DNA from: Longitalea luteola
GTDB lineage: Bacteria > Bacteroidota > Bacteroidia > Chitinophagales > Chitinophagaceae
Assembly: GCF_017356035.1 (NCBI RefSeq)
Contig: NZ_JAFIQX010000001.1
Coordinates: forward strand, 558,001 to 622,000
Reading direction: 5' to 3'
DNA: 64,000 nt
Shown here one piece after another: positions 1,041-62,773 of the stretch. How positions within the stretch are numbered: position 1 is the first letter of the stretch; every line of letters starts with the position of its first letter. The notes below the pieces were generated by a model that made no database searches, was not told the DNA's origin, and worked only from the letters and a program-made list of their open reading frames with translations. The translations under genes were made by a program, and so were the position numbers.

Positions 1041-1222
1041 GTCAATAGTCAATAGTCAATGGGCAATAGACAATGGGCAAAAGCCAAACGGCAATCGACA
1101 ATCGTCAATTGGCAATAGACAATGGGCAAAAGCAAAACGGCAATCAACAATCGTCAATTGGCAATAGACAATGGGCAAAAGCCAAACGGCAATCGACAAT
1201 CGTCAATTGGCAATAGACAATT
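1041..1222. repeat. Heptamer array, GNCAATN type (26 units), with 49-bp higher-order period
   Basis: Cutting the sequence from 1041 into sevens gives 26 consecutive units without a phase break: gtcaata, gtcaata, gtcaatg, ggcaata, gacaatg, ggcaaaa, gccaaac, ggcaatc and so on. The consensus is GNCAATN. From 1075 a block of seven heptamers (49 bp) is repeated three times almost exactly (1075-1123, 1124-1172, 1173-1221). The array starts 27 bp upstream of the GH16 start codon. Confidence 0.9.
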
Positions 1223-1246
1223 CCCCGCAGCCGCGCTGCGAGTAAT

Positions 1247-1288
1247 GGTAACTGGTAACAGGTAACCGGAAACCGGTAACTGGTAACA
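1247..1288. repeat. Heptamer array, GGTAACN type (6 units)
   Basis: Six units in strict 7-bp phase: ggtaact, ggtaaca, ggtaacc, ggaaacc, ggtaact, ggtaaca. The same core in both orientations recurs at 7533-7592, 26194-26228 and 42647-42750. Confidence 0.85.
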
Positions 1289-1306
1289 GATTCAAAAGGG
1301 AAAAAA

Positions 1307-1456
1307 ATGGCTATATCTAAACAGTCTCAGGGAAGCGGGTTCAATACCCGCTTAAGTGCCAAGGGATGCAACTACAACTTAATTACTATTTACAGGCAAG
1401 TGATCTCTGCAAAGAAGGTAGAGGCAAAAATCACTCCAATTGAATCATCTCGCTAA
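1307..1456 (+). CDS. Possible small protein, 49 aa (unrecognised)
   Basis: An ATG preceded by the purine-rich stretch AAAGGGAAAAAA opens a 49-codon frame (begins MAISKQSQGSGFNTR, ends PIESSR) that stops with TAA. It has no membrane segment or signal peptide and matches no family I know. It lies between two repeat arrays in a 1-kb intergenic region. The ribosome-binding-like purine run is the only positive sign, so this may be chance. Confidence 0.25.
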   Translation: MAISKQSQGSGFNTRLSAKGCNYNLITIYRQVISAKKVEAKITPIESSR

Positions 1457-1895
1457 ATCGTTTGAAATTTCAAAGCTATACATGATTATCATGATGGCAA
1501 AGAGTAAAATTACTCGATAATCGCCGCAGCGGCTGGCAGACGCTGCCGCCGCTATTTATGGAACCTATAACAGTGACGCAGGGTGGTTTCTTAAGATTAT
1601 CTGTTTATTTTTTGATAAATTGTAAGTCTTGCATGTGTTCGGGTCTGAGAATCAATTTAACAGTAACGGACATCCTTAATGTGGAAAAAAATAAAACTGT
1701 TTAAGTAAACAGAATATTTCGATCTGCTTTTACTTTGTACCTGCTTCTGCAACTATATTACTGCATTTACGAATTACCTTCTTCAATTTTTTAATACTAA
1801 AAAAGCTTAACGCTTAAGGCTTGCTGTGCATTTTTTTATGCGCTCAAATAAAAGTGCGCCTACGTAACGCTTACATGTAAATGACATTGCTTTCA
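1457..1895. other. Gene-free stretch upstream of the chitinase
   Basis: No coding frame is convincing here. A GC-rich imperfect hairpin lies near 1522-1552 (CGCCGCAGCG against CGCTGCCGCCG). A short run of three 7-bp units (gcttaac, gcttaag, gcttgct) lies near 1805-1825, ahead of the longer array. The rest is AT-rich and probably holds the chitinase promoter. Confidence 0.4.
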
Positions 1896-2007
1896 GCCTT
1901 ACGCCTTCAGCCTTGTGCCTTGAGCCTTGAGCCTTCAGCCTTGAGCCTTCAGCCTTGAGCCTTGTGCCTTTAGCGTTCCGCGTTGAGCGTTTAGCGTTGA
2001 GCGTTCC
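1896..2007. repeat. Heptamer array, GCCTTNN grading into GCGTTNN (16 units)
   Basis: Sixteen units in perfect 7-bp phase. Eleven are GCCTTNN (ac, ca, gt, ga, ga, ca, ga, ca, ga, gt, ta in the free positions) and five are GCGTTNN (cc, ga, ta, ga, cc). The array ends about 22 bp before the chitinase start codon, so it probably lies in the 5' untranslated region. Confidence 0.9.
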
Positions 2008-2029
2008 GCGTAATTGTTAACCAAAAAAA

Positions 2030-6124: not shown

Positions 6125-6292
6125 CATATCGAACTGTGAAGATCGATGATAAAGTGGGTATTGGAAGATGATTGGAAAAACCAAGGTATAAGGTGCCAGG
6201 GGGAAGATGTCAAGGCTCAGGTTCCCCGCCTGATCCGGTCCTGCCCCCTGGGCCTTATCTTTTGTATCTGTTTCCTGTATTCTTGTTAATTC

Positions 6293-6340
6293 GTCAACCC
6301 GTCAACCCGTCAACCTGTCAACTCTTTAACTGGTCAACTT
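6293..6340. repeat. Octamer array, GTCAACCN type (6 units)
   Basis: Six units of 8 bp: gtcaaccc, gtcaaccc, gtcaacct, gtcaactc, tttaactg, gtcaactt. The array lies between two convergent genes and its last bases overlap the stop codon of the MFS gene (6339-6341 on the minus strand). Confidence 0.8.
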
Positions 6341-7493
6341 AATCCTTCATTTCACTCACCAGCCAGGTGATCAATGCGCCGAATAAAGCAATCAATGCAA
6401 TTGACCAGCGCAGGTTAAATGCTTCAGCAATAAAACCAACAGCAGGTGGCACGATCAAAAAGCCAAAATAACCAATGGTAGAAACGCCGGCAATGGCAGG
6501 TCCGCCACTCATATGTTTGATCTTGCCTGCCATGCTGAAGACCATTGGTACCACACAGGATAATCCGAAGCCCGTCATCATAAAACCCACGGCGGTTGTA
6601 ATGGTATAAGGAAAGACAGCTGCAAGCAACAAGCCGGTGAGGATGAGCAGGCCGCTGTACTTCAACATATTTTTTACGCCGATGCTGCCAGCCAGTTTAT
6701 CGCCGGTCAAACGGCCGAGGGTAATGGCCACCATATAAATGGCATAACCGGTCGTGGCCATTTCTTTGGAAGCATGTACCGCTTTTTTCAAGTAAATAGC
6801 GCTCCAGTCGTACATGGTGCCTTCACAGGCCATGGCTGCAAAACAAATGAATCCCAGCTTGAGCAAGGCTTTATCGGGCATCCTGAATTTCGTTTTCTGT
6901 AACCGCTCATGCGGTTGTGGTTGCTGGTGAACCGTATCTTTAAAAAAGAAAACACAGAGACTGGTGAGGATAATACATACCGACAGGAAATGCCATGAGG
7001 GTGGAATGCTGAAACTGACCAGCAGCGACCCGATGGCTGCAGCGGCAAAACCGGCAATGCTCCAAATACCATGAAAGGTAGTAATGATGCTTCGGTCATA
7101 CATAGCCTGCACCCCAATGGATTGTGCATTGGCCGAAATATTGAACAGGTTGCGCGAACAGCCGAAGAAGAACAATACCACTACCAATTGCCAGGTTTCG
7201 GTGGTAAATCCAACCAGGCATAACATGAGATTAAAGATTACCGCACCGGTGAACATGGTATACCGGCTGCTGACCCGGCGCAACAAATAACCCGTGACCG
7301 GTAAGGTGCACATAAGTCCGGCGGGCAGGGCGAACAGAACCGCACCCAGCCTGCCTTCACTTAAATGTAAATTTTGCTGAATGGTTGGAATACGGGAAGC
7401 CCAGGAGGAAAAACCAAAACCCGACACAAAGAAAAACACAGCCGTAGCTATTCGGGATTTCCGGGGAGAAACATTGATCGACGCACTAGACAT
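6339..7493 (-). CDS. MFS transporter, YbjJ-like
   Basis: Inner-membrane major facilitator superfamily transporter of 384 residues with about 12 hydrophobic segments. The N-terminus contains GFGFSSWASRIPTIQ followed by LSEGRLG, the pattern of the YbjJ group of MFS proteins (SWASR-P near the end of the first helix). The substrate is not predictable from sequence. It lies directly downstream of the AraC-type regulator on the same strand (104-bp gap holding a hairpin-forming repeat), so the regulator may control it. Confidence 0.8.
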   Translation of the reverse strand: MSSASINVSPRKSRIATAVFFFVSGFGFSSWASRIPTIQQNLHLSEGRLGAVLFALPAGLMCTLPVTGYLLRRVSSRYTMFTGAVIFNLMLCLVGFTTETWQLVVVLFFFGCSRNLFNISANAQSIGVQAMYDRSIITTFHGIWSIAGFAAAAIGSLLVSFSIPPSWHFLSVCIILTSLCVFFFKDTVHQQPQPHERLQKTKFRMPDKALLKLGFICFAAMACEGTMYDWSAIYLKKAVHASKEMATTGYAIYMVAITLGRLTGDKLAGSIGVKNMLKYSGLLILTGLLLAAVFPYTITTAVGFMMTGFGLSCVVPMVFSMAGKIKHMSGGPAIAGVSTIGYFGFLIVPPAVGFIAEAFNLRWSIALIALFGALITWLVSEMKD

Positions 7494-7532: not shown

Positions 7533-7592
7533 GTTACCGGTTACCGGTTGCAGGGAAAATCCCTGTAACCGGTAACTTGTAACCTGTAACTG
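7533..7592. repeat. GTTACCG/GTAACCN heptamers arranged as a long hairpin
   Basis: Units gttaccg, gttaccg, gttgcag on the left and gtaaccg, gtaactt, gtaacct, gtaactg on the right. The two halves pair: GTTACCGGTT at 7540-7549 with AACCGGTAAC at 7567-7576, one mismatch, then CAGGGA with TCCCTG around an AAA loop. It sits between the AraC gene's stop and the MFS start, where it could act as an attenuator or RNA stabiliser. Confidence 0.8.
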
Positions 7593-7597: not shown

Positions 7598-8488
7598 TCA
7601 GGCTGTAGCAGCCGCTACCATTTTCCGGTCGAACATTACCTGTTTACGGTAGCCGGTAGGGCTCATGCCTTTGTATTTTTTAAAAATGCGGTTCAAATGG
7701 CTTTCATCGGTAAAATGTAATTCAAAGGCAATCTCGTTAATGCGCATATCGCTGTGCAGCAATCTTGTTTCTACCAGTTTCAGTTTGTAGTTGGTGATAT
7801 ATTGTTGTAAGGTTTCGCCGGTATGTTTTTTAAAGTACTCACTGAGGTAATTGACCGAGATCTGGAAAGTGTTGGCAATTTGTTCGGCCTTTAATAATTC
7901 AGGTTTGTAAATATTGGCCTGCACATAATGTATGATCTTGTAAATGGTTTCATCATTGTTGGAATCATACTTCATTTTCCCCGGCACTTTGATGTACAGG
8001 TTGCGGGCAACAATAGAGATCACGGTATTCACCATTTGATGAATGATCTCCTGGTGATAGGGATCTTTATTGATATGCTCCTTGATCAATCCTTCTATCA
8101 ACGCTTTTACTAACACACGATCGTTCATTCCTTTCAGGATGCAGCCGGGTGAATGCGTGGTATTATGAAAAATGAACTCCAGCTTTTTTATCCATTCATT
8201 CTGATGGCTGTTAGCCAGTTCATTCTGTGATTTGAAATAAATATCATTGAAGCGGATCAGGAAAAATTTGGTTGTAGTCCTGACCGTCAGCTTGTGTGAG
8301 TCCTGCGGCGTAAGCAGGAAAAGATGACCGTTACTGTATTCGAATTTATTCTTATTGATGCAATGGGTGCCGGTGCCATCGATGATATATACCAGTTCGA
8401 AGAAGTTGTGTTTGTGGGTTGGTTTGAGGCACTCATCTGTTTCTTTATAAAGTATCTCGAAAGGCTGATGGAGGTTCTCCGTGTTCAT
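7598..8488 (-). CDS. AraC-family transcriptional regulator
   Basis: Cytoplasmic regulator, 296 residues from the ATG at 8488 (MNTENLHQPF). An in-frame TTG at 8515 would add nine residues but is less likely. The N-terminal half is a cupin-type sensor domain (PTHKHNFFELVYIIDGTG, a typical beta-barrel start). The last ~100 residues are the double helix-turn-helix HTH_18 domain (AEQIANTFQISVNYLSEYFK, then INEIAFELHFTDESHLNRIF). It is divergent from the TolC/RND/MFP efflux genes (250-bp shared upstream region) and upstream of the MFS transporter, so either may be its target. Confidence 0.88.
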   Translation of the reverse strand: MNTENLHQPFEILYKETDECLKPTHKHNFFELVYIIDGTGTHCINKNKFEYSNGHLFLLTPQDSHKLTVRTTTKFFLIRFNDIYFKSQNELANSHQNEWIKKLEFIFHNTTHSPGCILKGMNDRVLVKALIEGLIKEHINKDPYHQEIIHQMVNTVISIVARNLYIKVPGKMKYDSNNDETIYKIIHYVQANIYKPELLKAEQIANTFQISVNYLSEYFKKHTGETLQQYITNYKLKLVETRLLHSDMRINEIAFELHFTDESHLNRIFKKYKGMSPTGYRKQVMFDRKMVAAATA

Positions 8489-8738
8489 GCCTGTAAAAGT
8501 ACAGAATAAACCCAAAATTGTACAACAGAATATCGAACCGGAATTTGCATTTTTACATGCCTGTTAAAATTCGCGCAGCCTGGTAAAAACCGGATCATTG
8601 ATCACCTGCTACATGAACGCTGAGCAAACATACTGTCTCTGCCACGATGCTTTCCATTAAAAACGGATTAAAAGGTGAGGAGTAACTTCTTTCACTGCGA
8701 AGGATTTTTCACCGTTAACGTTCAATTAACAACCAATC

Positions 8739-10211
8739 ATGGTCTTACGCGAAAGAATTTACGGGTTACACTTTCTAACTACAGCAAGAACCCAAAAAAG
8801 TACTAAACGTGTCACTCCACTACCGGTGATCGTTATGGGGCTGCTATTGTTTGGATTTGACAAGCCGGCAACAGCGCAGTCATCATCACCGATGCTATTA
8901 TCAGAAGCCATCGATGCGGGATTAAAGAATTATCAAAGCATAAAGGCGAAGAAAAATTACCTGGATGCTTCAGCCGCATTGGTGCAAAATACCCGCAATG
9001 AATATTTGCCTAATGTAATTGCCTCGGTGCAACAGGATTATGGTACCATTAACGGACAGTATGGTCCTCTGGGCGCGGTGGGCGTTCCGGGACTGGCATC
9101 GAGTGGTCCGGTCAGTGCTTCGCAAAACTGGAATGCCTCTTTTGGCTCGCTGTACTTCATAAACACCAACTGGGAATTCTTTACGTTCGGCCGGTTGAGA
9201 TCAAAGATCAACCTGGCCAGTGCCCAGGTGCAACGGGATTCTGCCGACCTGGTACAGGAACAATTTATTCATAGTGTGAAGATTGCAGGGGCTTACCTGA
9301 ATTTACTCACCTCCCAGAAGCTGGTGCAGAATGCGCAGGCGAATCTCAACAGGGCATTGTCGGTAAAAGAAGTGGTGACGGCAAGAACCCGCACCGGGTT
9401 AAATGCCGGCGTTGATTCTGCCATTGCCAATGCGGAAGTTTCCCGCGCCCGCCTGGCGCTGATCAATGCACGCAACAACGAGCTGCAATTGCGGATCCAG
9501 CTGGCGCAGTTCCTGAATGTACCGCCGGCCGCTTTTAATCTCGACACCAGCTTTTTTACGGCGCTGCCCGCCGAGGTAAAAACCAATGCGCCTGTTACGC
9601 AAAATCCGCAAATAAAGTTTTTTCAGTCACGCATCAATCAAAGCGATGTGGCTACCGCCTACCTGAAAAGAAGCATTTTACCGGGCGTGAACCTGTTTGG
9701 TGTTTTTCAAACCAGGGGTTCGGGGTTTGATCATACTTATTCACCGGCTACCAACCCAAAGTATTCAGGTGATTACCTGGATGGTATCAGGCCAACGCGC
9801 AGCAACTATGTGGCAGGACTGGCCGTTACCTGGAATATCATGAGCATTGCTAAGATAAAACAGCAGGTAAAAGCACAGCAGTTCATTACCGAGGCCTACA
9901 AGAATGAGTACGACCAGGTGAATACCCAATTGCAGGATCAATTGATCCTGGCCGATCAGCGCATCGAGAACAGCCTGGAAAGTGTGCATGAGGTGCCGCA
10001 GCAATACCAGGCCGCTGCCGACGCCTTTTTACAGAAAAGCGTTTTGTACAAAAATGGCTTAACCAATATCGTTGACCTGCAGCAGGCCTTGTTTACGCTG
10101 AACCGCGCAGAAACCGACCGCAGTGTGGCGTATATCAATGTATGGCAGTCGTTGTTGTTGAAATCGGCTGCTTCCGGAGATTTTGATCTTTTTATAAGGC
10201 AGGTTAAATAG
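8739..10211 (+). CDS. TolC-like outer-membrane efflux protein
   Basis: Outer-membrane channel of a tripartite efflux system, 490 residues. The N-terminal ~47 residues contain a long charged stretch and a signal peptide core (VIVMGLLLFGF, cleavage near ATAQ). An internal ATG at 8835 would give a shorter signal peptide. Two TolC repeats follow, with long amphipathic helices typical of the periplasmic tunnel (for example LVQNAQANLNRALSVKEVV and NEYDQVNTQLQDQLILADQ). Genes for the inner-membrane pump and the adaptor follow in the same direction, so the three probably work together although repeat-filled gaps separate them. Confidence 0.88.
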   Translation: MVLRERIYGLHFLTTARTQKSTKRVTPLPVIVMGLLLFGFDKPATAQSSSPMLLSEAIDAGLKNYQSIKAKKNYLDASAALVQNTRNEYLPNVIASVQQDYGTINGQYGPLGAVGVPGLASSGPVSASQNWNASFGSLYFINTNWEFFTFGRLRSKINLASAQVQRDSADLVQEQFIHSVKIAGAYLNLLTSQKLVQNAQANLNRALSVKEVVTARTRTGLNAGVDSAIANAEVSRARLALINARNNELQLRIQLAQFLNVPPAAFNLDTSFFTALPAEVKTNAPVTQNPQIKFFQSRINQSDVATAYLKRSILPGVNLFGVFQTRGSGFDHTYSPATNPKYSGDYLDGIRPTRSNYVAGLAVTWNIMSIAKIKQQVKAQQFITEAYKNEYDQVNTQLQDQLILADQRIENSLESVHEVPQQYQAAADAFLQKSVLYKNGLTNIVDLQQALFTLNRAETDRSVAYINVWQSLLLKSAASGDFDLFIRQVK

Positions 10212-10308
10212 TTCAAAGTTTATAGTTCAAAGTTCAAAGTTCAAAGTTCAAAGTTCAAAGTTCAAAGTTCCAAGTTCAAAGTTCAAAGTTTACAGTTTAT
10301 AGTTCTTA
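10211..10308. repeat. Heptamer array, GTTCAAA type (14 units)
   Basis: Fourteen units of 7 bp in one phase; nine are gttcaaa and the others are gtttata, gttccaa, gtttaca, gtttata and gttctta. The first base of the array is the last base of the TolC-like gene's TAG stop codon, so the array starts exactly where translation ends. Confidence 0.9.
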
Positions 10309-10371
10309 GTCCTTTATTGTATGCGAACAGTAATCGCAAATCCGCTAAACTTTTTACGTATCAAGCATTCT

Positions 10372-10406
10372 GCGTTCAGCGTTTTGCGTTCAGCGTTCAG
10401 CGTATT
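10372..10406. repeat. Heptamer array, GCGTTNN type (5 units)
   Basis: Units gcgttca, gcgtttt, gcgttca, gcgttca, gcgtatt. The array ends 11 bp before the RND pump's start codon, the same relation seen before the chitinase gene. Confidence 0.85.
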
Positions 10407-10417: not shown

Positions 10418-13400
10418 ATGAATCTCATTAGATTAGCATTACGAAAACCCATAACGATCCTGGTGTTGGTGGCAGGGTTGTGCTTTTTTGGGGTAAGCGC
10501 CGTGCGGAGCATCAAGGTAGACATCTTCCCCAAGCTCGACCTGCCGGTTATTTATATCTCTCACCCCTTTGGTGGTTATACGCCCAACCAAATGGAAGCA
10601 TTCTTTGGTAAACAATACGTGAACCTTTTACTGTATGTATCTGGTGTAAAGAGCATTGAGACAAAGAATATCCAGGGGCTAACGTTGATGAAGCTGTCTT
10701 TTTATCCCGGAACCAATATGGCGCAGGCTGCAGCGGAGGTCAGCGCGTATTGTAACCGGGCCCAGGCAATTTTTCCGCAAGGGTCACAGCCGCCGTTCAT
10801 CCTGCGTTTCGACGCCTCCACGCTGCCGGTAGGACAGCTGGTATTGAGCAGTGCAGTGCGCAGCAACAACGAGCTGATGGACCTCGCCAACGTGTATGTA
10901 CGTTCTTCTTTTACTTCTATTCCCGGCCTGGTATCACCGGCGCCTTTTGGTGGTAACGTGCGTACGGTGGTCATAAAGGCCGATCCGGAGTTGCTGCGGG
11001 CGCACAATATGACGCCCGATCAATTGGTGGCCGCCATACGCATCAACAACCAGACCTCTCCTTCGGGCAATGTGCGTATCAATGATAAGAACTATATAAC
11101 ACCAACCAACACCACTATCAAAACGATAAAAGATTTTGAGAACATTCCGTTATTCAAGGGCGGGGTTCAGAACCTGTACCTGCGCGATGTGGCAACCGTT
11201 GAAGATGGCGCCGATATTACCTCAGGGTATGCCCTGGTAAATGGAAAGCGGTCGGTGTACCTGCCGATCACCAAATCGGCCGATGCCAGCACCTGGGAAG
11301 TGGTGCAGAACCTGAAGAAAGCCATTCCAAAATTTCAGGCCCAGTTGCCTGATGATGTAAAGTTGTCTTATGAATTCGACCAGTCGGTATATGTGATCAA
11401 TGCGGTGAAGAGTTTGATCTCGGAAGGCGCTATTGGCGCCATACTTACCGGGTTGATGGTACTGTTGTTCCTGGGCGATGCAAGAGGCGCGTTAATTGTG
11501 ATATTGACTATTCCAACCTCCATCATTTCCGGTGTCTTGTTCCTGTCGCTGTTCGGGCAAACCATCAATATCATGACCTTAAGCGGTCTGTCGCTGGCCA
11601 TTGGTATCCTTGTCGATGAATCAACGGTGACGATCGAGAACATACACCAGCATTTTGCGATGGGGAAACCGAAGGCGCTGGCCATCTGGGATGCCTGTAA
11701 GGAGATCGCTTTTCCCAAGTTGCTCATCCTGTTGTGTATCCTGGCGGTTTTTGCGCCGGCATTCACCATGGGCGGCATACCCGGTTCTTTGTTCCTGCCG
11801 CTGGCGCTGGCAATTGCATTCTCCATGGTAACCTCTTATTTCCTGGCCCAGACCTTTGTACCCATCATGGCCAACTGGATCATGAAGGCGCATCCTGTAA
11901 ACCATCATACCATGGAACAGGTTAAAGCAGTGGTTGAACATGATAAAGATACCTGGGATCAAAAGAAAGTATTGCTCGATAAAACAGGCAAAGATGCCAA
12001 AGGTTTTGAAAAGATCCGCGCACGCTTCCTGCGGTTCCAGGAACGGATCTTACCTTACCGCAAACCTGTAGTGATCGCCTATCTTGTGCTGGTAAGTGGC
12101 GCCGCCGTATTGTTGCTATCGAACATTGGCCGTGACGTTCTGCCCCGCACGAATGCCGGACAATTTCAGTTGCGGATAAAAGCGCCTGAAGGTACCCGTA
12201 TTGAACGTACTGAAGGGTTTATGCTGAAAACGCTTCAGTCGCTGGATGACCTGATCGGCAAAAAAAATATCTCTGTTACTTCTGCATACGTAGGTCAGCA
12301 CCCCGCATTGTTCAGTACCAGCCCCATCTACCTGTTCATGCCTGGCCCCAATGAGGCCGTTGTGCAGGTGCAGTTGAGTGAGGAATATGAAGAAGACCTG
12401 GATGAACTGAAGGAAAAGATCAGGGCGAAACTGGCGACGGTTATCCCGGAAGTGAAATTATCTTTTGAACCGATTCAACTAACCGATAAAATCCTGAGCC
12501 AGGGATCGCCTACACCGGTGGAGATCCGCATTTCAGGCAGAAATAAAAAACTGAATGAGGAATATGCCAACAAGGTGATCGATAAATTGAAAACGATCCC
12601 GTACCTGCGGGATGTGCAATTGGGCCAGTCGACCAAATACCCTGCTATCAACATCAATATCGACAGAACCAGGGCCGCGCAACTGGGCGTGGATATCAAC
12701 GATATTTCGCGTTCGCTGATCACGTCTACTTCTTCGTCACGTTATACCGAGAAGAACGTGTGGGTGGATGAAAGGTCAAACCTGTCGTACAGTGTGATGG
12801 TGTACGTACCTGAAAACAAAATGACCAGCGTAAGCGATATCGGCGAAATACCGCTTGTAAGCAATCAGCCACGGCCGGTTCTAAGCGATGTGGCTTCCAT
12901 TACACCCGATTTTACGTATGGTGAGAACGATAACGTGGGCGCCATGCCGATGCTGAGTGTTACTGCCAACTTGAATAATAAAGACCTGGGTACCGCTACC
13001 AGGGACATTCAAAAGGCCCTTCAATCGATGGGCGAATTACCGCGCGGTTTAACTGTTGAGCCCAAAGGTTTAAGTGAAGTGCTGACCGATACGCTCGACA
13101 GTCTGCAGGGTGGATTGCTGGTAGCCATTGTGGTGATCTTTTTGATGCTGGCTGCGAACTTTCAATCGTTCAAGGTGTCGGCAGTGATCCTGGCCACCAT
13201 ACCAGCGGTTGTGTTCGGGTCGCTGGTGATGTTGCAATTAACCGGTTCTACGCTTAACCTGCAATCGTATATGGGTATCATTATGTCGGTGGGTGTGTCC
13301 ATCGCCAACTCGGTGCTGCTTATTACCAATGCAGAGCACCTCCGCCTGCACAACGGCAATGCCTGGGCATCCGCGAGGGAAGCAGCAGCGCTGCGGTTAC

Positions 13401-13696
13401 GGCCTATTCTCATGACAACCATTGCGATGGTGGCGGGGATGATACCAATGGCTTCGGGTTTCGGTGAAGGCGGCGACCAGGCATCTCCTTTGGGACGTGC
13501 CGTAATTGGCGGTTTGATCGCTTCTACAATTGCCGCCTTGTTTATTCTGCCCATGGTATTTGCGTGGGTGCAGGGAAAAGCTTCCATTCAATCTGTATCC
13601 CTCGATCCTGAGGATAAGGAGAGTAAATATTATCATGAGGGTGAGTCAGCAATCGTCAATCGTCAATCGACATTCGGCAATAGTGAAAATTCGTAG
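10418..13696 (+). CDS. RND-family efflux pump, inner-membrane permease subunit
   Basis: Proton-driven RND pump of 1092 residues: an N-terminal helix (MNLIRLALRKPITILVLVAG), two large periplasmic loops and about 12 membrane segments. Conserved signatures include VDIFPKLDLPVI near residue 35 and, in the fourth helix, GILVDESTVTIENI with D400-E401. HAE1 pumps such as AcrB carry two Asp here, so the second acidic residue is Glu; I believe this subfamily often has it. The substrate is unknown. The last ~17 residues (AIVNRQSTFGNSENS) are encoded by a heptamer repeat array and are unlikely to be functional sequence. It lies between genes for a TolC-like protein and a lipoprotein adaptor. Confidence 0.9.
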   Translation: MNLIRLALRKPITILVLVAGLCFFGVSAVRSIKVDIFPKLDLPVIYISHPFGGYTPNQMEAFFGKQYVNLLLYVSGVKSIETKNIQGLTLMKLSFYPGTNMAQAAAEVSAYCNRAQAIFPQGSQPPFILRFDASTLPVGQLVLSSAVRSNNELMDLANVYVRSSFTSIPGLVSPAPFGGNVRTVVIKADPELLRAHNMTPDQLVAAIRINNQTSPSGNVRINDKNYITPTNTTIKTIKDFENIPLFKGGVQNLYLRDVATVEDGADITSGYALVNGKRSVYLPITKSADASTWEVVQNLKKAIPKFQAQLPDDVKLSYEFDQSVYVINAVKSLISEGAIGAILTGLMVLLFLGDARGALIVILTIPTSIISGVLFLSLFGQTINIMTLSGLSLAIGILVDESTVTIENIHQHFAMGKPKALAIWDACKEIAFPKLLILLCILAVFAPAFTMGGIPGSLFLPLALAIAFSMVTSYFLAQTFVPIMANWIMKAHPVNHHTMEQVKAVVEHDKDTWDQKKVLLDKTGKDAKGFEKIRARFLRFQERILPYRKPVVIAYLVLVSGAAVLLLSNIGRDVLPRTNAGQFQLRIKAPEGTRIERTEGFMLKTLQSLDDLIGKKNISVTSAYVGQHPALFSTSPIYLFMPGPNEAVVQVQLSEEYEEDLDELKEKIRAKLATVIPEVKLSFEPIQLTDKILSQGSPTPVEIRISGRNKKLNEEYANKVIDKLKTIPYLRDVQLGQSTKYPAININIDRTRAAQLGVDINDISRSLITSTSSSRYTEKNVWVDERSNLSYSVMVYVPENKMTSVSDIGEIPLVSNQPRPVLSDVASITPDFTYGENDNVGAMPMLSVTANLNNKDLGTATRDIQKALQSMGELPRGLTVEPKGLSEVLTDTLDSLQGGLLVAIVVIFLMLAANFQSFKVSAVILATIPAVVFGSLVMLQLTGSTLNLQSYMGIIMSVGVSIANSVLLITNAEHLRLHNGNAWASAREAAALRLRPILMTTIAMVAGMIPMASGFGEGGDQASPLGRAVIGGLIASTIAALFILPMVFAWVQGKASIQSVSLDPEDKESKYYHEGESAIVNRQSTFGNSENS
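13645..13689. repeat. GNCAATN heptamers inside the end of the RND coding sequence
   Basis: Units gtcaatc, gtcaatc, gacattc, ggcaata and gtgaaaa (13655-13689), preceded by an imperfect unit gtcagca, continue the GNCAATN family seen at 1041-1222. They lie upstream of the RND stop codon and encode its C-terminal tail. Confidence 0.75.
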
Positions 13697-15124: not shown

Positions 15125-15173
15125 ACTTAGTACTTAAAACTTAAAACTTATAACTTAAAACTTATAACTTAGA
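15125..15173. repeat. Heptamer array, ACTTAWA type (7 units)
   Basis: Units acttagt, acttaaa, acttaaa, acttata, acttaaa, acttata, acttaga. The array overlaps the 3' end of the esterase gene on the minus strand (stop at 15162-15164), so its last units encode the final residues SKL. Confidence 0.8.
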
Positions 15174-15791
15174 ATTATGGAAGATCAATTCGCGCACCTG
15201 GTCAATCTCGTCCTGGCTAATGGTATGCCCCATGTTCTTATAGATCTTCTTGGTTACCTGTGCATGCATTCCTGCCAGTATTTCTGCTGACGCATGAACC
15301 CTTTCTACCGGTACGTGCGGATCGGGATCGCTGGTGCCAATGAAGACGGGGGTTCCGGCAAAATCACCGGTATAATTTTGATCATATATTTTATCGCCGA
15401 TCAGTCCGCCGGTAAAAGCAACCGCACCACCGTAACGGTTTGCATGGCGGGTGATAAATTCCAGCGTTAAACAGGCGCCCTGTGAGAAGCCGAGAAAATA
15501 GATCTCTTCTTTTTTAATGCCGGTGGCTTCTACATCGGCTACTACTTCTTTCAGCAGGGCCAGGGCACTGGATAACCACGGCTCGTTGTCTTTCGGAGCT
15601 GCCAGAAAAGAATACGGGTACCAGGTATTATTAGTGGCCTGCGGCGCAAACAGGGCAAAGTCTTTCACCGGCAAATAATCTGCAAGCCCCAGAATGTCTT
15701 CTGCACTGCCGCCTCGTCCGTGGATCATAATTAACGCTTTTGTCGCTTCGCCTGTTTGCTTGCCGGCCCGTATAACTTGTTTTGTATGCAT
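15162..15791 (-). CDS. Alpha/beta-hydrolase, phospholipase/carboxylesterase family (MhqD-like)
   Basis: Cytoplasmic serine hydrolase of 209 residues. GFSQGACL gives nucleophile S103; IGTSDPDPHVP holds the likely Asp (D155 or D157) and NMGHT the His (H189). The fold also shows the oxyanion region MIHGRGGSAED near residue 25. It starts 4 bp after the ring-cleaving dioxygenase gene. The same pairing exists in Bacillus subtilis, where mhqD and mhqO respond to methylhydroquinone, so a role in handling quinones or their ring-cleavage products is a reasonable inference. The substrate is not shown by the sequence. Confidence 0.82.
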   Translation of the reverse strand: MHTKQVIRAGKQTGEATKALIMIHGRGGSAEDILGLADYLPVKDFALFAPQATNNTWYPYSFLAAPKDNEPWLSSALALLKEVVADVEATGIKKEEIYFLGFSQGACLTLEFITRHANRYGGAVAFTGGLIGDKIYDQNYTGDFAGTPVFIGTSDPDPHVPVERVHASAEILAGMHAQVTKKIYKNMGHTISQDEIDQVRELIFHNSKL

Positions 15792-17375: not shown

Positions 17376-17493
17376 TGTTTTACTATTTTTTGTTTTGTTA
17401 TTAATTATTGACATCACAAATTTCGCCCGGAAACAGGAGCTGGAGAATAGTGATATGATGGAATCTGTTGTACATTTTATGGGAAGAAAGCCA

Positions 17494-17570
17494 AACGCTT
17501 AACGCCGAACGCGGAACGCTTAACGCCGAACCTGCCTGCCGGCAGGCAGGTGCTTAATGCGGAACGCAAA
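17494..17570. repeat. Heptamer array, AACGCNN type, interrupted by a 22-bp palindrome
   Basis: Units aacgctt, aacgccg, aacgcgg, aacgctt, aacgccg at 17494-17528. A perfect palindrome at 17530-17551 built on CCTGCCTGCC/GGCAGGCAGG follows, then further units near aatgcgg, aacgcaa. On the minus strand the units read GCGTTNN, pointing towards the downstream YceI gene as the GCGTTNN arrays before the chitinase and RND genes do. The palindrome looks inserted into the array. Confidence 0.8.
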
Positions 17571-17626: not shown

Positions 17627-17655
17627 AACCTAAATATGTTAACTGTTTATTTTCA

Positions 17656-17690
17656 GCCTTGAGCCTTGAGCCTTCAGCCTTTAGCCTTGA
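17656..17690. repeat. Heptamer array, GCCTTNN type (5 units)
   Basis: Units gccttga, gccttga, gccttca, gccttta, gccttga, ending 5 bp from the stop codon of the neighbouring YceI gene. Confidence 0.85.
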
Positions 17691-17694
17691 GCCC

Positions 17695-20001: not shown

Positions 20002-20079
20002 AATTTCTGATTTCTGATTTCTGATTTCGAGATTTAAGATTTCGAGATTTTGAGATTTCAAGATTCAGAGATTTTGAAA
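20002..20079. repeat. GATTTCN heptamer/octamer array between convergent genes
   Basis: Three 7-bp units gatttct/gatttct/gatttcg pass into 8-bp units gatttcga, gattttga, gatttcaa, gattcaga, gattttga. A weaker array of the same type lies near 48330-48350 upstream of smpB. Confidence 0.7.
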
Positions 20080-20141
20080 TTTATCGGGAAGTAGAACATA
20101 AGCAAATCAAAAAATCAGCAATCTCCAAATCAGCAATCATT

Positions 20142-29494: not shown

Positions 29495-29504
29495 CGCTAA
29501 AAAG

Positions 29505-42646: not shown

Positions 42647-42750
42647 GTTACCGGTTACCAGGTCCCGGTTACCCCGTTAAAGAGAGCCCGATTATTGGTA
42701 CAATAATCGACATTCAAGGCCCGGCAACCGGTAACTGGCAACCGGTGACC
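42647..42750. repeat. GTTACCN / GGNAACC heptamers forming an inverted pair around a hairpin
   Basis: Left half: gttaccg, gttacca, ggtcccg, gttaccc. Right half: ggcaacc, ggtaact, ggcaacc, ggtgacc. Between them lies a perfect hairpin CGATTATTG-GTA-CAATAATCG (42690-42710). It starts directly after the parE stop codon and resembles the inverted array at 7533-7592. Confidence 0.8.
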
Positions 42751-47374: not shown

Positions 47375-47670
47375 ATGTTAATTTAAGTAGAAAAATCAAG
47401 CCAAGCAATAAATAGCAAATTTCCTAATACATACGATCCGTTAAGTTAACCAGTAGGGAGTACTTAACGATTTTCTTAACGGCCTATGGCTTGTTTCCGG
47501 GTGGGTGTTTTTCAAGGGATGGAGGTACGGCAGGCACAAAAATATATCGCAGTTTCCATATCTCAGAGTAATTGGCAGACTCTGTGGAAAATAAATTTCT
47601 TTAATAGGTAAGGCGAATGGTAAAAGGGTAAAAATCAAGGCGTAGGGCTTACTTTTACACGGTCAAGTAA

Positions 47671-47702
47671 TTTGATGATGTGATAATTCGATAATTTGAT
47701 AA
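47671..47702. repeat. TNNGATAA octamer array (4 units), inverted relative to the next array
   Basis: Units tttgatga, tgtgataa, ttcgataa, tttgataa. They are the reverse complement of the CATTATCA-type units at 47766-47876, so both arrays can pair. The remainder of the 47375-47765 gap shows no gene. Confidence 0.75.
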
Positions 47703-47765
47703 TGCCCTAATTCGGGGAAGTCCTTTTTAATCCGAAATTCAAGCGAAGCTTTCCCTGCCTGTATT

Positions 47766-47876
47766 CATTATCACATTATCACATTATCACATTATCACAT
47801 TATCACATTATCACATTATCACATTATCACATTATCACATTATCACATTATCACATTATCTCATTATCACATTATT
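47766..47876. repeat. Octamer array, CATTATCA type (14 units)
   Basis: Fourteen units of 8 bp, nearly identical (one CATTATCT; the last unit ends CATTATT). On the minus strand the units read TGATAATG and begin exactly at the smpB stop codon (47872-47874), so the array forms the start of smpB's 3' untranslated region. Confidence 0.92.
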
Positions 47877-48309: not shown

Positions 48310-48386
48310 GAAGAAATTGCGGGATTTAGTGATTTTGAGATTTTGAGATCTGTCGGAAAGTTCAAATGTAAGAAAATCCCGAAAAA

Positions 48387-53518: not shown

Positions 53519-53640
53519 TACCTTGTTATTTAGTTGATCGGTTACTCGTTAACTAGTCAACTTGTCAACTCTTCAGCTTATTTAACTACCTTGTTATTTA
53601 TTTGATCAGTTACTCGTTAACTAGTGAACTCGTCAACTTA
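53519..53640. repeat. 68-bp direct repeat (two copies) of GTTAACTAGT/GTCAACT type
   Basis: Copies begin at 53519 and 53587 with taccttgttattta, then TTACTCGTTAACTAGT in both, and differ at several bases. The inner 8-bp motifs GTCAACTT/GTCAACTC belong to the octamer family at 6293-6340. Confidence 0.7.
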
Positions 53641-56450: not shown

Positions 56451-56498
56451 ATTTGCCCATTTTCCCATTTGCCCATTTGCTAATTTGCCCATTGCCCT
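56451..56498. repeat. Octamer array, ATTTGCCC type (6 units)
   Basis: Units atttgccc, attttccc, atttgccc, atttgcta, atttgccc, attgccct. It ends about 40 bp before the ABC-F start. Confidence 0.75.
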
Positions 56499-56502
56499 TT
56501 GA

Positions 56503-59027: not shown

Positions 59028-59211
59028 GCCTGTTACAGGTGCATAAACTGTCATTTCATGCAATAAATGCTAACTTTAAGCGCTATTTACCTGTATGACT
59101 GATATCGCTTACTGTAAAGTGAAGATCAGCGGGGCTACCCAAACCAACTTCTTTTCAGAAGATGCCGTAAGTATCCTCTTTTGAAAAGACGCATAAAAAT
59201 CAAACTAAAGG

Positions 59212-62200
59212 TTGTTGATCGGGAAGTACCTGATACTGTGCTTTTGTTTTTCCGTAGGCTGGCTGCTGGCCGCTGCCCAAACTCCGCGCCCCATGGCGTC
59301 TGGCTCTAACCTGCGCAAAAAAATGGTTCCTGCCCAACAACAGGTCGTACAGCTCGATACCTTCAGTATTGTTCCCGGTACCGTTTCTGTAGCGGGTATT
59401 CCCGACAGCTTGTACGACATTGACTTTGTAAACGCCCGCCTCACCTGGAAGCAGCTACCCGCCCTGGATAGTATTCTTGTTCGTTACCGCGTATTCAGAA
59501 CGCGTCTGAACGCCGTGGTTAATCGCATGCAGTACGACAGCATCATGAATAATTTCATGGGTGCGCCTTTTGCCCCCAATTATGTAGGCGTTGGGGCAGG
59601 CGATAACTTTTTCAATTTCGGTAACATTAATTATAACGGCAGCTTTGGCCGGGGCATTTCCTTTGGCAACAGCCAGGATGCCGTATTTAGCAGCAACCTG
59701 AACCTACAGTTAAGCGGTTACCTGGCAGATAGCATCGAGATCGTGGCCGCCATTACCGATAACAATATACCCATTCAGCCAGATGGTACTACCCAGCAAT
59801 TAAACGAATTTGACCGCATCTTTTTACAGTTCAAAAAAAAGACCTGGCAGCTAAGCCTGGGCGATATTGATATCCGCCAGCAGCAGCAAAGCTATTTCCT
59901 CAACTTTTATAAACGCCTGCAGGGTATTGCCTTCGAAACAACCACAGCCATTACCGACAGCATATCCAACAAAACCCTGCTCAGCGGTTCCATTGCCAAG
60001 GGTAAATTCACCCGTAATATATTGACGCCGCAGGAAGGCAACCAGGGACCTTATCGCTTACAGGGCGCCAATAATGAATTTTACTTTGTGGTGCTGGCCA
60101 ATACCGAAAGGGTATATATCGATGGGGTGTTGATGCAGCGGGGCGAAGACCGCGATTATGTGATCAATTACAATACGGCGGAAATTTCCTTTACGCCCCG
60201 GCAGATGGTCACCAAAGACAAACGCATTGTGGTGGAGTTTGAATATGCCGACCGCAATTACCTGAACTCGAATATTTACATTACCAACGAAACCGATTTC
60301 AACCGGAAAGTAAAACTGCGGCTGGGATATTTCAGTAATGCTGATGCTAAAAGCTCGCCCATCAATCAAAGCCTCGATGCCGATCAAAAAACATTTTTGC
60401 GCAACCTCGGTGATAGTATAAGCAGGGCTTATTATCCCTATTCAACCCTCGATACCTTTTCAACCGGCGCCATCCTGTACAAAAAGATCGATACAGTATA
60501 TAATGGCGGAGCCCGTGATTCCATCTTTGTGTATTCAACCAATCCCGACGAAGCGCTGTATTCCCTGTCGTTTATCGACGTGGGCGTTAATAACGGCAAT
60601 TACGTTCCTGATCTCAACGGGGCCAATGGTAAAGTATATCGCTGGATTGAACCTGTTGGCGGCGTACCGCAGGGTTCTTTTGAACCGGCTGTCTTCCTGG
60701 TAACGCCAAAAAAACAACAGGTAGCCAACCTGGGGGTGGAGTATAATATTGGGAAGAATACTGTATTGAACACCGAGGTGGCCATGAGTAATTATAATGT
60801 AAATACGTTTTCGGATCTTGACAAAGCCGATGATCGCGGCTATGCGGCCAAAGTAGATTTTAAAAATGTCCTTCCTTTTAACAGATCTAAAAAGGGCCTG
60901 AAGCTGACGACTGATCTTGGGTATGAATATGTAGATGCCCGCTTTAAGCCGCTGGAACGGTTACGGAATATTGAATTTACCCGCGATTGGGGGCTCCCCT
61001 TGCTGTTGAATGTACCCGAACATGAAAATATTGTAACAGCCGGTTTGCAGGTATCGGACGCAAAAAATAACTCGCTGCGGTATCAGTTCACAGAATACAA
61101 CCGCGGAACCAGTTTTACCGGTTTCCGCCATAGCGTTACCCATATTCAAAGTATCCGGCAATGGCAGCTGAATAACCAGTTGACGCTGTCGAATATAGAT
61201 GCTACCAATGATAAAGGGTATTTCTGGCGGCCGACCATAAACATCTCCCGGCAGTTCAAGAAGCTGAAAAATTACACGATTGGCGGTGCCTATGCGGTGG
61301 AACATAATGCCATTCGCAATAAGTTCACCGATAGCATGGCTATACAAAGTTTTTCCTTCAGCCAGACCTCGGCCTTTTTGAAGTCAGACCAGAACATACC
61401 CAACCGCTGGGGTATTAACTGGTTCACCCGAACCAATTCTTATCCCCAGGGAACAGCTTTGGTAAAGGCCGACAAAAGTCAGAACGTAACAGTAAGTGGT
61501 GAACTGGCGAAAGATCCCCGCCACCAGGTACGGTTTACCAGTACCTACCGCAAGCTGCAGATCCTCGACAGCACCCTGAACCGGCAGCTACCGGAAGAAA
61601 GTCTGTTGGGCCGGGCTGAATACCAGGTGAATATTTTAAAAGGCTTACTGAGCGGCAACCTGCTGTATGAAGTAGGAGCGGGGCAGGAGCAAAAAAGAGA
61701 TTATTCTTACCTCGAAGTGCCGGCAGGGCAGGGGGAGTTTACCTGGATCGATTACAACAATGACCGCATTCAGCAGTTGAATGAATTTGAAGTGGCCCTG
61801 TTCCAGGACCAGGCCAAGTTCATTCGCATCTTTACGCCTACCAATGTATACGTGAAGGCCAATTACAATACGTTCAACTATAGCATTAATCTTAATCCCC
61901 GCGCCGTGATCGATGTAGCGAAGGCTAAGAACCTGCGTAAGTTCATTTCGAGGGTGAACCTGCAATCCTCGTTACAGATCAGCAAAAAAGAAGTGGCCGA
62001 TAAGATCGTTCAGTTCAATCCGTTCAGGTCGCCGTTGAATGATACTTCCCTGATCACCCTTACTTCCAATCTGGTAAATACATTTTCCTTTAACCGCTTC
62101 AGTACAAAATGGGGGTTCGATGTGACCAATGCCCGTAATGAATCGAAATCATTGCTTACGTACGGGTACGAAAGTCATAAACTCGATGACTGGACGGTGC

Positions 62201-62724
62201 GCGGCCGCTTGAATATCACCAGGATGTTTGCCATCGAGATGGCGGGCCGCACAGGCATCAACCAGCTCATTTCTTCCAATCCGAAATTCGATAACCGCAA
62301 TTACAGGATCAACCAGTATTCGGCAGAACCCCGGCTCACTTTTACGAAGGGAACCAATTTCAGGATGGGGGTAGGTTATAAGTACAGCGATAAAGAAAAT
62401 ACCCAGGGCAGCCAGGAAAGATCAATAGCGAATTCGCTGAACACCGATGTGAAGTATAACATATTGCAGAACACATCCATAATGGCGAAATTCACTTACA
62501 CCGGTATAAGCTTCTCTTCGCTCGATAGTGTGCCTAATGTAAACTCTTCATCTGGCTATATCATTCTGGAAGGATTAATGCCGGGCAAGAACTTTTTATG
62601 GACGCTCGATCTTACCAAACGTCTTTCGAACAATCTTGAGTTCAGCATGCAGTATGAGGGGCGTAAACCTGGTACTTCCCGTATTGTTCATATCGGACGG
62701 GCTTCTATCCGGGCGCTCTTATAA
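59212..62724 (+). CDS. Large predicted outer-membrane beta-barrel protein, TTG start
   Basis: 1170 residues. A TAA stop lies directly upstream in frame (59206-59208) and no ATG precedes the signal peptide (ILCFCFSVGWLLAAAQ), so translation must begin at TTG 59212 or 59215. The N-terminal third has a globular, repeat-like part (VYIDGVLMQRGEDRDYVIN, VVEFEYADRNYLNSN) similar to segments of very large surface proteins of the phylum. The rest alternates Tyr/Phe/Asn-rich strands typical of an outer-membrane beta-barrel and ends with aromatic-rich strands. I do not recognise a named family. No T9SS tail is seen. Confidence 0.7.
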   Translation: MLIGKYLILCFCFSVGWLLAAAQTPRPMASGSNLRKKMVPAQQQVVQLDTFSIVPGTVSVAGIPDSLYDIDFVNARLTWKQLPALDSILVRYRVFRTRLNAVVNRMQYDSIMNNFMGAPFAPNYVGVGAGDNFFNFGNINYNGSFGRGISFGNSQDAVFSSNLNLQLSGYLADSIEIVAAITDNNIPIQPDGTTQQLNEFDRIFLQFKKKTWQLSLGDIDIRQQQQSYFLNFYKRLQGIAFETTTAITDSISNKTLLSGSIAKGKFTRNILTPQEGNQGPYRLQGANNEFYFVVLANTERVYIDGVLMQRGEDRDYVINYNTAEISFTPRQMVTKDKRIVVEFEYADRNYLNSNIYITNETDFNRKVKLRLGYFSNADAKSSPINQSLDADQKTFLRNLGDSISRAYYPYSTLDTFSTGAILYKKIDTVYNGGARDSIFVYSTNPDEALYSLSFIDVGVNNGNYVPDLNGANGKVYRWIEPVGGVPQGSFEPAVFLVTPKKQQVANLGVEYNIGKNTVLNTEVAMSNYNVNTFSDLDKADDRGYAAKVDFKNVLPFNRSKKGLKLTTDLGYEYVDARFKPLERLRNIEFTRDWGLPLLLNVPEHENIVTAGLQVSDAKNNSLRYQFTEYNRGTSFTGFRHSVTHIQSIRQWQLNNQLTLSNIDATNDKGYFWRPTINISRQFKKLKNYTIGGAYAVEHNAIRNKFTDSMAIQSFSFSQTSAFLKSDQNIPNRWGINWFTRTNSYPQGTALVKADKSQNVTVSGELAKDPRHQVRFTSTYRKLQILDSTLNRQLPEESLLGRAEYQVNILKGLLSGNLLYEVGAGQEQKRDYSYLEVPAGQGEFTWIDYNNDRIQQLNEFEVALFQDQAKFIRIFTPTNVYVKANYNTFNYSINLNPRAVIDVAKAKNLRKFISRVNLQSSLQISKKEVADKIVQFNPFRSPLNDTSLITLTSNLVNTFSFNRFSTKWGFDVTNARNESKSLLTYGYESHKLDDWTVRGRLNITRMFAIEMAGRTGINQLISSNPKFDNRNYRINQYSAEPRLTFTKGTNFRMGVGYKYSDKENTQGSQERSIANSLNTDVKYNILQNTSIMAKFTYTGISFSSLDSVPNVNSSSGYIILEGLMPGKNFLWTLDLTKRLSNNLEFSMQYEGRKPGTSRIVHIGRASIRALL

Positions 62725-62738
62725 GGCGGAAGGCACTC

Positions 62739-62773
62739 ACCATTGACCATTGACCATTGACCATTCACCATTG
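62739..62773. repeat. Heptamer array, ACCATTG type (5 units)
   Basis: Units accattg, accattg, accattg, accattc, accattg in one phase, between the convergent ends of two genes. Confidence 0.85.

What the first reader, a model, noticed from the sequence alone, without database searches (positions are those of the whole stretch)
1041..62773. Window-wide system of heptamer/octamer arrays, each with its own core, between genes
At least 17 arrays share a strict 7-bp (sometimes 8-bp) period with a fixed core and one or two free positions per unit. They include GNCAATN (1041), GGTAACN (1247), GCSTTNN (1896, 10372, 17494, 17656), GTCAACCN (6293), GTTACCG (7533, 42647), GTTCAAA (10211), ACTTAWA (15125), GATTTCN (20002), CATTATCA (47766), ATTTGCCC (56451) and ACCATTG (62739). 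Different sequences with one shared period suggest a common mechanism rather than descent from one repeat. Heptanucleotide STRR arrays of similar design are known from filamentous cyanobacteria. I know of no described system of this kind in Bacteroidota. They could be made by slippage, be targets of a protein with a 7-nt footprint, or act in RNA.
Basis: partly seen in the sequence, partly recalled or inferred. Interest (0 to 1): 0.78.

Follow-up and report, generated by a model that had tools for sequence, protein, structure and literature searches.

The report
Paired heptamer arrays bracketing bacterial genes
Spacers between genes in this soil bacterium, and patchily in its family, hold tandem repeats of almost exactly 7 or 8 bases that often face each other across the spacer in one fixed direction, which hints at small spreading foldback elements rather than random copying slips alone.

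Summary
The arrays are real. In 464 kb of this genome, intergenic DNA holds 73 arrays at lag 7 and 40 at lag 8, against 0-2 each at lags 5, 6 and 9-13. The host shares a genus with a genome that matches Niastella yeongjuensis. The trait is patchy in Chitinophagaceae: 80 named loci hold 76 and 17 arrays at lags 7 and 8, and 0, 0, 1, 0, 1 at lags 5, 6, 9, 10, 11. Beyond the finding: cores are shared (97 of 113 arrays fit nine words) and word counts differ up to 200-fold between sister species; arrays sit at gene 3' ends and avoid divergent promoters; inverted pairs keep one polarity 46:1, the word reading from gene into spacer. I read them as arms of small foldback elements, later altered by slippage; the spreading agent is unknown and only one clean whole-pair empty site was found. 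Close precedents exist: Xanthomonas GGGAATC pairs (PMC4692102) and TAACTGA heptamers, also in five Bacteroidetes (PMC4679880). So this is a new variant of a known kind.

The parts
1043..1221 (+). 7-bp array, word CAATnGn, 25.6 units, with a 49-bp (7 x 7) higher-order repeat of 3.7 copies at 93%
   Evidence: word family
1242..1289 (-). 7-bp array GGTAACN (word GTTACC read on the minus strand)
1892..2011 (-). 7-bp array AGCCTTN then AGCGTTN just upstream of the gene at 2030 (words AAGGC/AACGC on the minus strand, as the rule predicts before a start codon)
6292..6322 (-). 8-bp array CGTCAACC, 17 bp from the 3' end of the minus-strand MFS gene (6339-7493); word GTTRAC in sense
7533..7549 (+). short GTTACCG array, left arm of an inverted pair
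7562..7591 (-). GGTAAC-type array, right arm of the pair, next to the stop of the AraC-type gene (7598-8515 minus). With a lower threshold the spacer holds a lag-7/8 array in 7 of 9 Niastella species, with differing words
10210..10305 (+). 7-bp array AGTTCAA, 13.7 units, starting inside the stop codon (10209-10211) of the outer-membrane efflux gene; by lag scan 14.0 units here against 5.7 in G007
10364..10403 (-). 7-bp array GCGTTCA before the AcrB-type gene (word AACGC on the minus strand)
13650..13681 (+). 7-bp array CAATCGT inside the last codons of the AcrB-type ORF (10418-13696)
15125..15174 (-). 7-bp array ACTTAAA overlapping the 3' end of the minus-strand esterase gene (15162-15791)
17486..17531 (+). 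GAACGCC array (word AACGC), left arm in the spacer between two YceI genes
17652..17693 (-). AGCCTTG array (word AAGGC in sense), right arm, ending at the stop of the YceI gene 17695-18237
20003..20083 (+). GATTTCT (7) passing into GATTTCGA (8) array right after the stop of the RibD-type gene (19393-19998); left arm of a convergent pair
20113..20139 (-). AAATCAGC array, right arm, next to the stop of the NamZ gene (20142-21371 minus)
42647..42673 (+). GTTACCG array directly after the stop of the gyrase-B/ParE-type gene (ends 42645)
47668..47714 (+). 8-bp GATAATNN array, left arm
47766..47875 (-). 8-bp CATTATCA array, 13.8 units at 98%, right arm, reaching the stop of smpB (47872-48309 minus); word GATAAT in sense
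48323..48349 (+). 8-bp GATTTTGA array
53551..53638 (.). two short 8-bp GTTAACTN/GTCAACTN arrays (53551-53570 and 53612-53638)
56451..56501 (.). 8-bp ATTTGCCC array between two plus-strand ORFs
62739..62776 (-). 7-bp ACCATTG array (word CAATnG on the minus strand) between convergent ORFs; judged by its nearest gene it breaks the orientation rule
   Evidence: rule

Best explanation
Many of the arrays are arms of small intergenic foldback elements. Such an element is an inverted pair: a tandem array of one 7- or 8-nt word (a fixed core of about 5-6 nt plus 1-3 free positions), an unrelated stretch (9-196 bp in the pairs found, searched up to 200), then the reverse complement of the word. The word reads from the flanking gene into the spacer and is usually G-richer than its complement. 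Shown here: period, shared words, 3'-end placement, polarity, orientation, turnover between species, and one clean presence/absence of a whole pair. Inferred: pairs are gained and lost as units and words spread within a genome in bursts, as REPINs or eukaryotic foldback elements do; slippage then lengthens, shortens and homogenises arms; selection removes them from coding DNA and promoters, leaving gene 3' ends, where a transcript could fold into a hairpin. The agent that spreads them is not identified.
For: Arrays occur at lags 7 and 8 and hardly at others. Arrays lie within 15 bp of a gene 3' end at 41 of 139 ends (random placement mean 18.3, maximum 32 in 1000), in G018 26 of 58 (7.2, 14), in G005 8 of 19 (3.2, 8); 5' ends are not enriched (12 of 87 against 9.8 here). 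Arrays run over gene 3' ends 23/17/5 times against 5/2/0 over gene starts in this genome, G018 and G005. Density per kb: 4.68 convergent, 0.54 divergent. G018 neighbour pairs: 18 inverted, 0 direct of 20. An inverted partner in the same spacer (p<=0.05) exists for 38 of 95 arrays here and 28 of 46 in G018 (expected 4.8, 2.3). Polarity 46:1 over the 14 words, of 16 tried, that formed pairs. The word follows stop codons 152:19 and its complement precedes start codons 56:3. Word-free check on 3' sides: GC skew read from gene into spacer +0.31 to +0.63 in four groups against -0.07 to +0.01 in array-less spacers. Matches of AAGGC arrays: 405 here, 2 in sister G007; AACGC 568 and 19; ATTATC 167 here, 0 in G009. 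Of 144 orthologous spacers, 16 share the word, 15 hold different words. One 99-bp insert is a whole AACGC...GCGTT pair, both 22-nt flanks 91% identical in the empty sister.
Against: Only one clean whole-pair empty site: a plain aligner found 6 clean large gaps, of which 1 held an array, and that was a mere length change; the one-gap search solved 18 of 56 length-different spacers, 6 with arrays, 2 with strong inverted arms. Arms are not unit-by-unit copies: 40 pairs, excess -0.001 +- 0.041. In this genome direct neighbours (16) outnumber inverted ones (10) among 42 pairs, and 24 same-strand pairs occur. On 5' sides the skew rule is clear in G018 and other Chitinophagaceae (+0.44, +0.50 against +0.18 in array-less G018) but weak here (+0.21 against +0.13) and absent in other Niastella (+0.06 against +0.12). 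Stretches outside arrays are mostly unrelated; of 121 hits among spacers here I saw the top 40, concentrated in a few spacers. Array spacers fold only slightly better than array-less ones here (median z -1.81, -1.42) and in G018 (-3.60, -3.29); G005 -3.14 (n=6), -1.56. No transposase is tied to the arrays; no target-site duplication was seen. Orthologous loci of related species are counted separately, so counts are not fully independent.
Confidence: 0.4

Rival explanations
1. Local replication slippage. A DNA polymerase that slips by 7-8 nt seeds arrays anywhere; selection keeps only those outside coding and promoter DNA, so they collect between stop codons and the next promoter. No mobile unit is needed.
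For: 49-bp higher-order repeat and nearly perfect long arrays; array lengths differ by half a unit or more in 14 of 16 same-word spacers between sister species; exact-core runs fall off steadily, 98, 54, 25, 13 for 2-5 units; arrays are rare in long ORFs; fixed cores within single arrays depart from a neutral slippage simulation in only 8 of 38 arrays (1.9 expected). The idea that 7 nt is the stretch in contact with the polymerase was read as cited in PMC4692102 and PMC4679880.
Against: Independent slippage does not give the same word at many loci of one genome and almost none in its sister, inverted pairs with fixed polarity, the orientation rule, or different words in the same orthologous spacer.
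Confidence: 0.28
2. Binding sites. The core of each word is bound, in DNA or in the 3' part of mRNA, by a protein with a 7-8 nt step, and selection keeps core, spacing and orientation; free positions are not contacted.
For: Cores are conserved across loci while 1-3 positions vary; orientation is fixed relative to genes; each word keeps its own period, save GATTT (7 and 8) and one AACGC run at 9; a CAATnG-type array stands beside the Y1 gene in 9 of 10 Niastella genomes.
Against: Nine or more words per genome would need many specificities; words are replaced between sister species in the same spacer; neighbouring genes in the window belong to unrelated families.
Confidence: 0.15
3. Transcription terminators. 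The inverted pairs are long terminator stems, or the C-richer right arms are Rho loading sites.
For: 3'-end placement and inverted pairs.
Against: No T run follows the right arm (T fraction 0.32 in 10 nt; 0.31 at the inner flank) and 6 of 36 inter-arm stretches hold a terminator-like hairpin; array spacers here hold one in 2 of 57, array-less ones in 9 of 112. Published rut descriptors use YC spacings of 9-13 nt (PMC9160355, passages).
Confidence: 0.07
4. Fail-safe stop codons. Period 7 or 8 puts the stop codons of a word in all three frames behind a gene.
For: Many G018 units after genes contain TAA, TAG or TGA. Stops per 100 nt within 40 bp of a gene's stop: sense 10.2, antisense 5.1 here; 13.2 and 6.5 in G018. 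At 4-40 bp, where ORF calling does not bias the count: 8.4 and 5.2 here, 12.0 and 5.0 in G018.
Against: Periods 5, 10 and 11 would serve equally and are absent or nearly so. In other Chitinophagaceae the bias at 4-40 bp is reversed (7.0 and 8.9). GTTACC and CAGGTT words cannot hold a stop.
Confidence: 0.05

Closest known systems
Xanthomonas GGGAATC and Nostoc GGGGA(C/T)T heptamer repeats (Rehm et al. 2015, PMC4692102; passages, section 10 and Discussion read)
   Same: 7-bp units with fixed core and free positions (GGGANTN); mostly intergenic; on average 28 nt from the 5' neighbouring ORF; 70 and 75 inverted pairs in two Xanthomonas genomes; few between divergent ORFs; [quoted passage not shown] four units commonest; strong length and sequence variation between related species.
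   Different: One G-rich word type with G-quadruplex capacity, and in Nostoc few paired repeats; here many words per genome, mostly without G runs, two period classes (7 and 8), and word counts that differ between sister species.
TAACTGA repeats of marine Beggiatoaceae, Cyanobacteria and five Bacteroidetes (MacGregor 2015, PMC4679880; abstract, section 10 and passages read)
   Same: Heptamer direct repeats between genes, also in Bacteroidetes; indels in 7-nt steps between close Cyanothece strains; sporadic phylogeny.
   Different: One word; in the Beggiatoaceae strain studied mostly just upstream of start codons, not inverted pairs at gene 3' ends.
Cyanobacterial STRR heptanucleotides and bacterial long SSRs (Calothrix and a 2007 survey as cited in PMC4692102; primary papers not read; the name STRR is from the finding)
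   Same: Excess of 7-nt units, noted for intergenic DNA in Xanthomonas and Nostoc.
   Different: No inverted, oriented pairs or period-8 class in the passages I saw.
REPINs and REP-associated tyrosine transposases (Bertels and Rainey 2011, PMC3116915; abstract and passages read; authors recalled)
   Same: Inverted doublets in extragenic space, less conserved spacer, hairpin potential, many copies per genome; a Y1-type transposase gene with an array beside it exists in Niastella.
   Different: REPs are palindrome-bearing 16-mers, not tandem 7/8-mers; no cognate transposase is shown here.
Foldback transposons of eukaryotes (search listing only; further detail recalled)
   Same: Terminal inverted repeats that are internally repetitive.
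   Different: Eukaryotic and larger; the one search made showed no bacterial case in its 8 listed papers of 65.

Membership tests
Bacterial intergenic heptanucleotide SSR / STRR | 7-nt tandem units in excess of other unit sizes, mainly between genes | tested here: met
Bacterial intergenic heptanucleotide SSR / STRR | array length changes between relatives | tested here: met
   lengths differ by 0.5 unit or more in 14 of 16 same-word spacers; whether changes are whole units was not tested
Xanthomonas/Nostoc-type G-rich heptamers | inverted pairs, near the upstream ORF, rare between divergent genes | tested here: met
Xanthomonas/Nostoc-type G-rich heptamers | GGG(G) tracts able to form G-quadruplexes | tested here: not met
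   cores AACGC, AAGGC, CAATnG, AGTTC, GTTACC, GATAAT, GATTT, GCTAAT, GTTRAC
TAACTGA repeats | word TAACTGA, forward, just upstream of start codons | tested here: not met
   other words; 3' ends enriched, 5' ends not
REPIN/RAYT | inverted doublets in extragenic space with fixed polarity | tested here: met
   many arrays lack a detectable partner
REPIN/RAYT | conserved REP 16-mer with its own palindrome | tested here: not met
   arms are tandem 7/8-mers with free positions
REPIN/RAYT | cognate Y1 transposase flanked by the same repeats | tested here: inconclusive
   a CAATnG-type array stands beside the Y1 gene in 9 of 10 Niastella genomes, but nearby spacers hold other words, array-poor G011 has a Y1 hit with no array beside it, and the best hit of array-rich G018 is broken
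Foldback/MITE elements | presence/absence as a whole at orthologous sites | tested here: inconclusive
   one clean case; one search found none; one search shows less clean ones
Foldback/MITE elements | target-site duplication | tested here: inconclusive
   none visible at the one clean site
Intrinsic terminators | T run directly after the right arm | tested here: not met

The most novel reading that the evidence does not exclude
A trans-acting enzyme, possibly the IS200-like Y1 protein encoded between aroF and aroB in Niastella, copies short foldback units made of tandem 7/8-nt words from spacer to spacer. They would be REPIN-like elements whose recognition ends are heptamer arrays, and the same would hold across phyla where heptamer repeats obey the same orientation rule (Xanthomonas, Nostoc).
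Probability: 0.15. Interest if true: 0.85.

Novelty: new variant of a known kind. Interest (0 to 1): 0.63.

Why it matters
Why many bacteria favour 7-nt tandem repeats is an open question in the papers read, with polymerase slippage as the guess they cite. The orientation rule, pair polarity and species-specific words found here are hard to get from slippage alone, and they match a layout reported for Xanthomonas and Nostoc, where the repeats were studied as G-quadruplexes. Words without G runs that follow the same rule argue that quadruplexes are not the cause. Chitinophagaceae, with many words and related species at hand, offer a system in which the question can be tested by resequencing.

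Tried and rejected
Terminator role: not supported as the main explanation. Rho loading sites: published spacing does not fit. Stop-codon safety: mixed evidence. Strong RNA fold as the distinguishing mark: small differences only. Dispersed MITE with conserved interior: most spacers unrelated, though a few share stretches (for example several G005 spacers at 79-88% over 55-114 nt), perhaps another element. Arms as direct copies of each other: not seen. Fixed core within single arrays as proof of selection: only 8 of 38 arrays. A preferred length of four units is partly a threshold effect: exact-core runs decline from two units on, while allowing one mismatch five units are commonest (33 arrays). 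The 'control' is invalid, because GGTAAC reversed is CAATGG, itself a real word. Y1_Tnp as the driver: no clear link. Pattern AGCCTTNNAGCCTTNNAGCCTT gave 0 hits because I wrote the wrong spacing. A synteny search with L010 met a poorly shared region.

Limits: gene calls are plain ORFs (60-100 aa minimum). The words were chosen by me after seeing the catalogue; pair members are counted again, which left out 140 of 370 arrays (70 further than 60 bp from a gene, 70 not inside one called spacer). In one search G007 arrays were sought with a lower threshold, yet some 'array here only' spacers show degenerate repeats in G007 to the eye, so 22 is an upper figure. The genus name rests on equal contig lengths (G009 C24 and L022, both 788043; G018 C1 and L037, both 3115359).

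Full report
Observation. Intergenic self-match in the window is raised at lags 7 and 8 by 11.2 and 10.3 SD over dinucleotide shuffles; coding DNA has no such peak. In the 400 kb upstream the values are 20.9 and 17.6 SD, with lag 6 at 6.5 and mild side lags. Scanning 464 kb for arrays gave 73 and 40 at lags 7 and 8, 58 at lag 14, 7 at lag 4, and 0-2 at lags 5, 6 and 9-13. TRF on the same DNA gave 144 repeat clusters, 60 with smallest period 7, 37 with 8 and 17 with 14.

Host and spread. Of 80 named loci, 32 hold at least one array; totals 76 at lag 7, 17 at lag 8, and 0, 0, 1, 0, 1 at lags 5, 6, 9, 10, 11. The trait is patchy in the family.

Words. Pooled arrays show fixed cores with free positions, for example AACGC + 2, AAGGC + 2, CAATnGn and GATAAT + 2. 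Nine words cover 97 of 113 arrays (column-permuted mean 35.7, maximum 47); 109 of 113 have a look-alike in another spacer (permuted mean 80.6, maximum 90). Each of 11 words tested keeps one period, except GATTT (7 and 8) and one AACGC run at 9. Genome-wide pattern counts differ strongly between species. AAGGC: 405 here (6 in the reversed-pattern control), 2 in the nearest sister G007, matches in 22 of 147 family genomes. AACGC: 568 here, 19 in G007, 1 in G001. ATTATC: 167 here, 173 in G007, 174 in G006, 0 in G004, G009 and G008 (61% complete). GAACT: 98 here, 356 in G006, 0 in G001 and G008. GAATTAR: 286 in G018 (20 in control) and 75 in a congener (21 in control), matches in 10 of 147 genomes. 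Long arrays count several times in these totals.

Place. Arrays are sparse in divergent spacers (0.54 per kb) and dense in convergent ones (4.68); they lie within 15 bp of gene 3' ends more often than random placement allows (41 of 139; mean 18.3, maximum 32), but not of 5' ends. They start 0-4 bp from a stop codon in 25 of 105 cases here and 23 of 46 in G018. They overlap gene ends 23, 17 and 5 times and gene starts 5, 2 and 0 times in this genome, G018 and G005; 13, 3 and 3 lie inside called ORFs, here mostly of 81-123 aa and perhaps spurious. With a lower threshold, the orthologous divergent promoter 8515-8739 holds an array in 0 of 9 species and 19237-19393 in 0 of 2, while 3' spacers hold one in 7 of 8, 7 of 9, 4 of 7, 1 of 3, 2 of 9, 4 of 8, 4 of 7 and 2 of 3.

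Pairs and orientation. In G018, arrays often begin at the stop codon with an inverted partner 9-317 bp on; of 20 neighbouring pairs 18 are inverted and none direct. In this genome 42 neighbouring pairs divide into 10 inverted, 16 direct (14 with gaps of 27 bp or less, so probably one broken array), 7 neither and 9 of different period. A supported inverted partner exists for 38 of 95 arrays here and 28 of 46 in G018 (expected 4.8, 2.3), a direct one for 22 and 0. Inverted pairs keep one polarity 46 times and break it once. The same words read away from stop codons 152:19, and precede start codons as their complement 56:3. A word-free measure, GC skew read from gene into spacer, gives +0.39, +0.63, +0.31 and +0.37 on 3' sides (this genome, G018, other Niastella, other Chitinophagaceae) against -0.07 to +0.01 in array-less spacers; on 5' sides +0.21, +0.44, +0.06 and +0.50 against +0.12 to +0.18, so there the rule is weak or absent in Niastella.

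Turnover. Of 144 orthologous spacers between this genome and G007, 84 have no array, 16 share a word, 15 hold different words, 22 have arrays only here and 7 only in G007, one of these facing a weak array here. Array length differs by half a unit or more in 14 of 16 same-word spacers. At C11:471594-471876 (313594-313876 of the 464-kb stretch) a 99-bp insert made of an AACGC array, a short stretch and the inverted array is absent from G007, with both 22-nt flanks at 91% identity; it is the one clean case among 56 length-different spacers, of which 18 gave a one-gap solution and 6 of those held arrays. A plain aligner missed it. The best inverted partner of 41 tested arrays lay in the same species' spacer 14 times against 5.1 expected. 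Arms are not unit-by-unit copies.

A side lead. Each of the ten Niastella genomes has one strong hit to an IS200-type Y1 protein, some with one or two weak ones. In this genome it lies between aroF/chorismate mutase and aroB; the other nine have ORFs of like size around it, not identified by profile and in part cut by the fetched stretch. Its score against the REP-associated tyrosine transposase model is far below the cut-off (23.3 against 80 bits). The spacer beside it carries a CAATnG-type array in 9 of 10 genomes. Since nearby spacers carry other arrays, G011 has a Y1 hit without one, and the best G018 hit is broken, this is only a lead.

Reading. Slippage surely shapes array length. It does not by itself give shared words, polarity and orientation. 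Rehm et al. 2015 report much the same layout for Xanthomonas and, apart from pairs, Nostoc, there with G-quadruplex words. I therefore take many of the arrays to be arms of small foldback elements of a kind that may occur in several phyla, with the mechanism of spread unknown. The searches for earlier reports were made; their listings showed no description in Chitinophagaceae, in a library that lacks most subscription journals.

Noticed in passing
29475-29883: A 113-bp tandem repeat of 3.6 copies (96%) whose unit contains tRNA-like sequence, beginning at the 3' end of a tRNA-Lys gene (29422-29495); it looks like repeated partial tRNA copies.
   Followed up: no
L252 1447-1902 (G000 C39 257267-257602 for the matched part): An IS200-like Y1 transposase gene sits between aroF/chorismate mutase and aroB; similar ORF layout in other Niastella, so it looks domesticated.
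   Followed up: partly
window 1043-1221: The array has a second-level 49-bp repeat (seven heptamers) of 3.7 copies at 93%, a sign of later block duplication.
   Followed up: no
window 13650-13681: A heptamer array lies within the last codons of an AcrB-type pump ORF, so arrays may alter protein C-termini.
   Followed up: no
L245-L252, L270, L272: spacer beside the Y1 gene: A roughly four-unit array keeps its word family, and in several species its unit order, across the genus, unlike many arrays, which turn over.
   Followed up: partly
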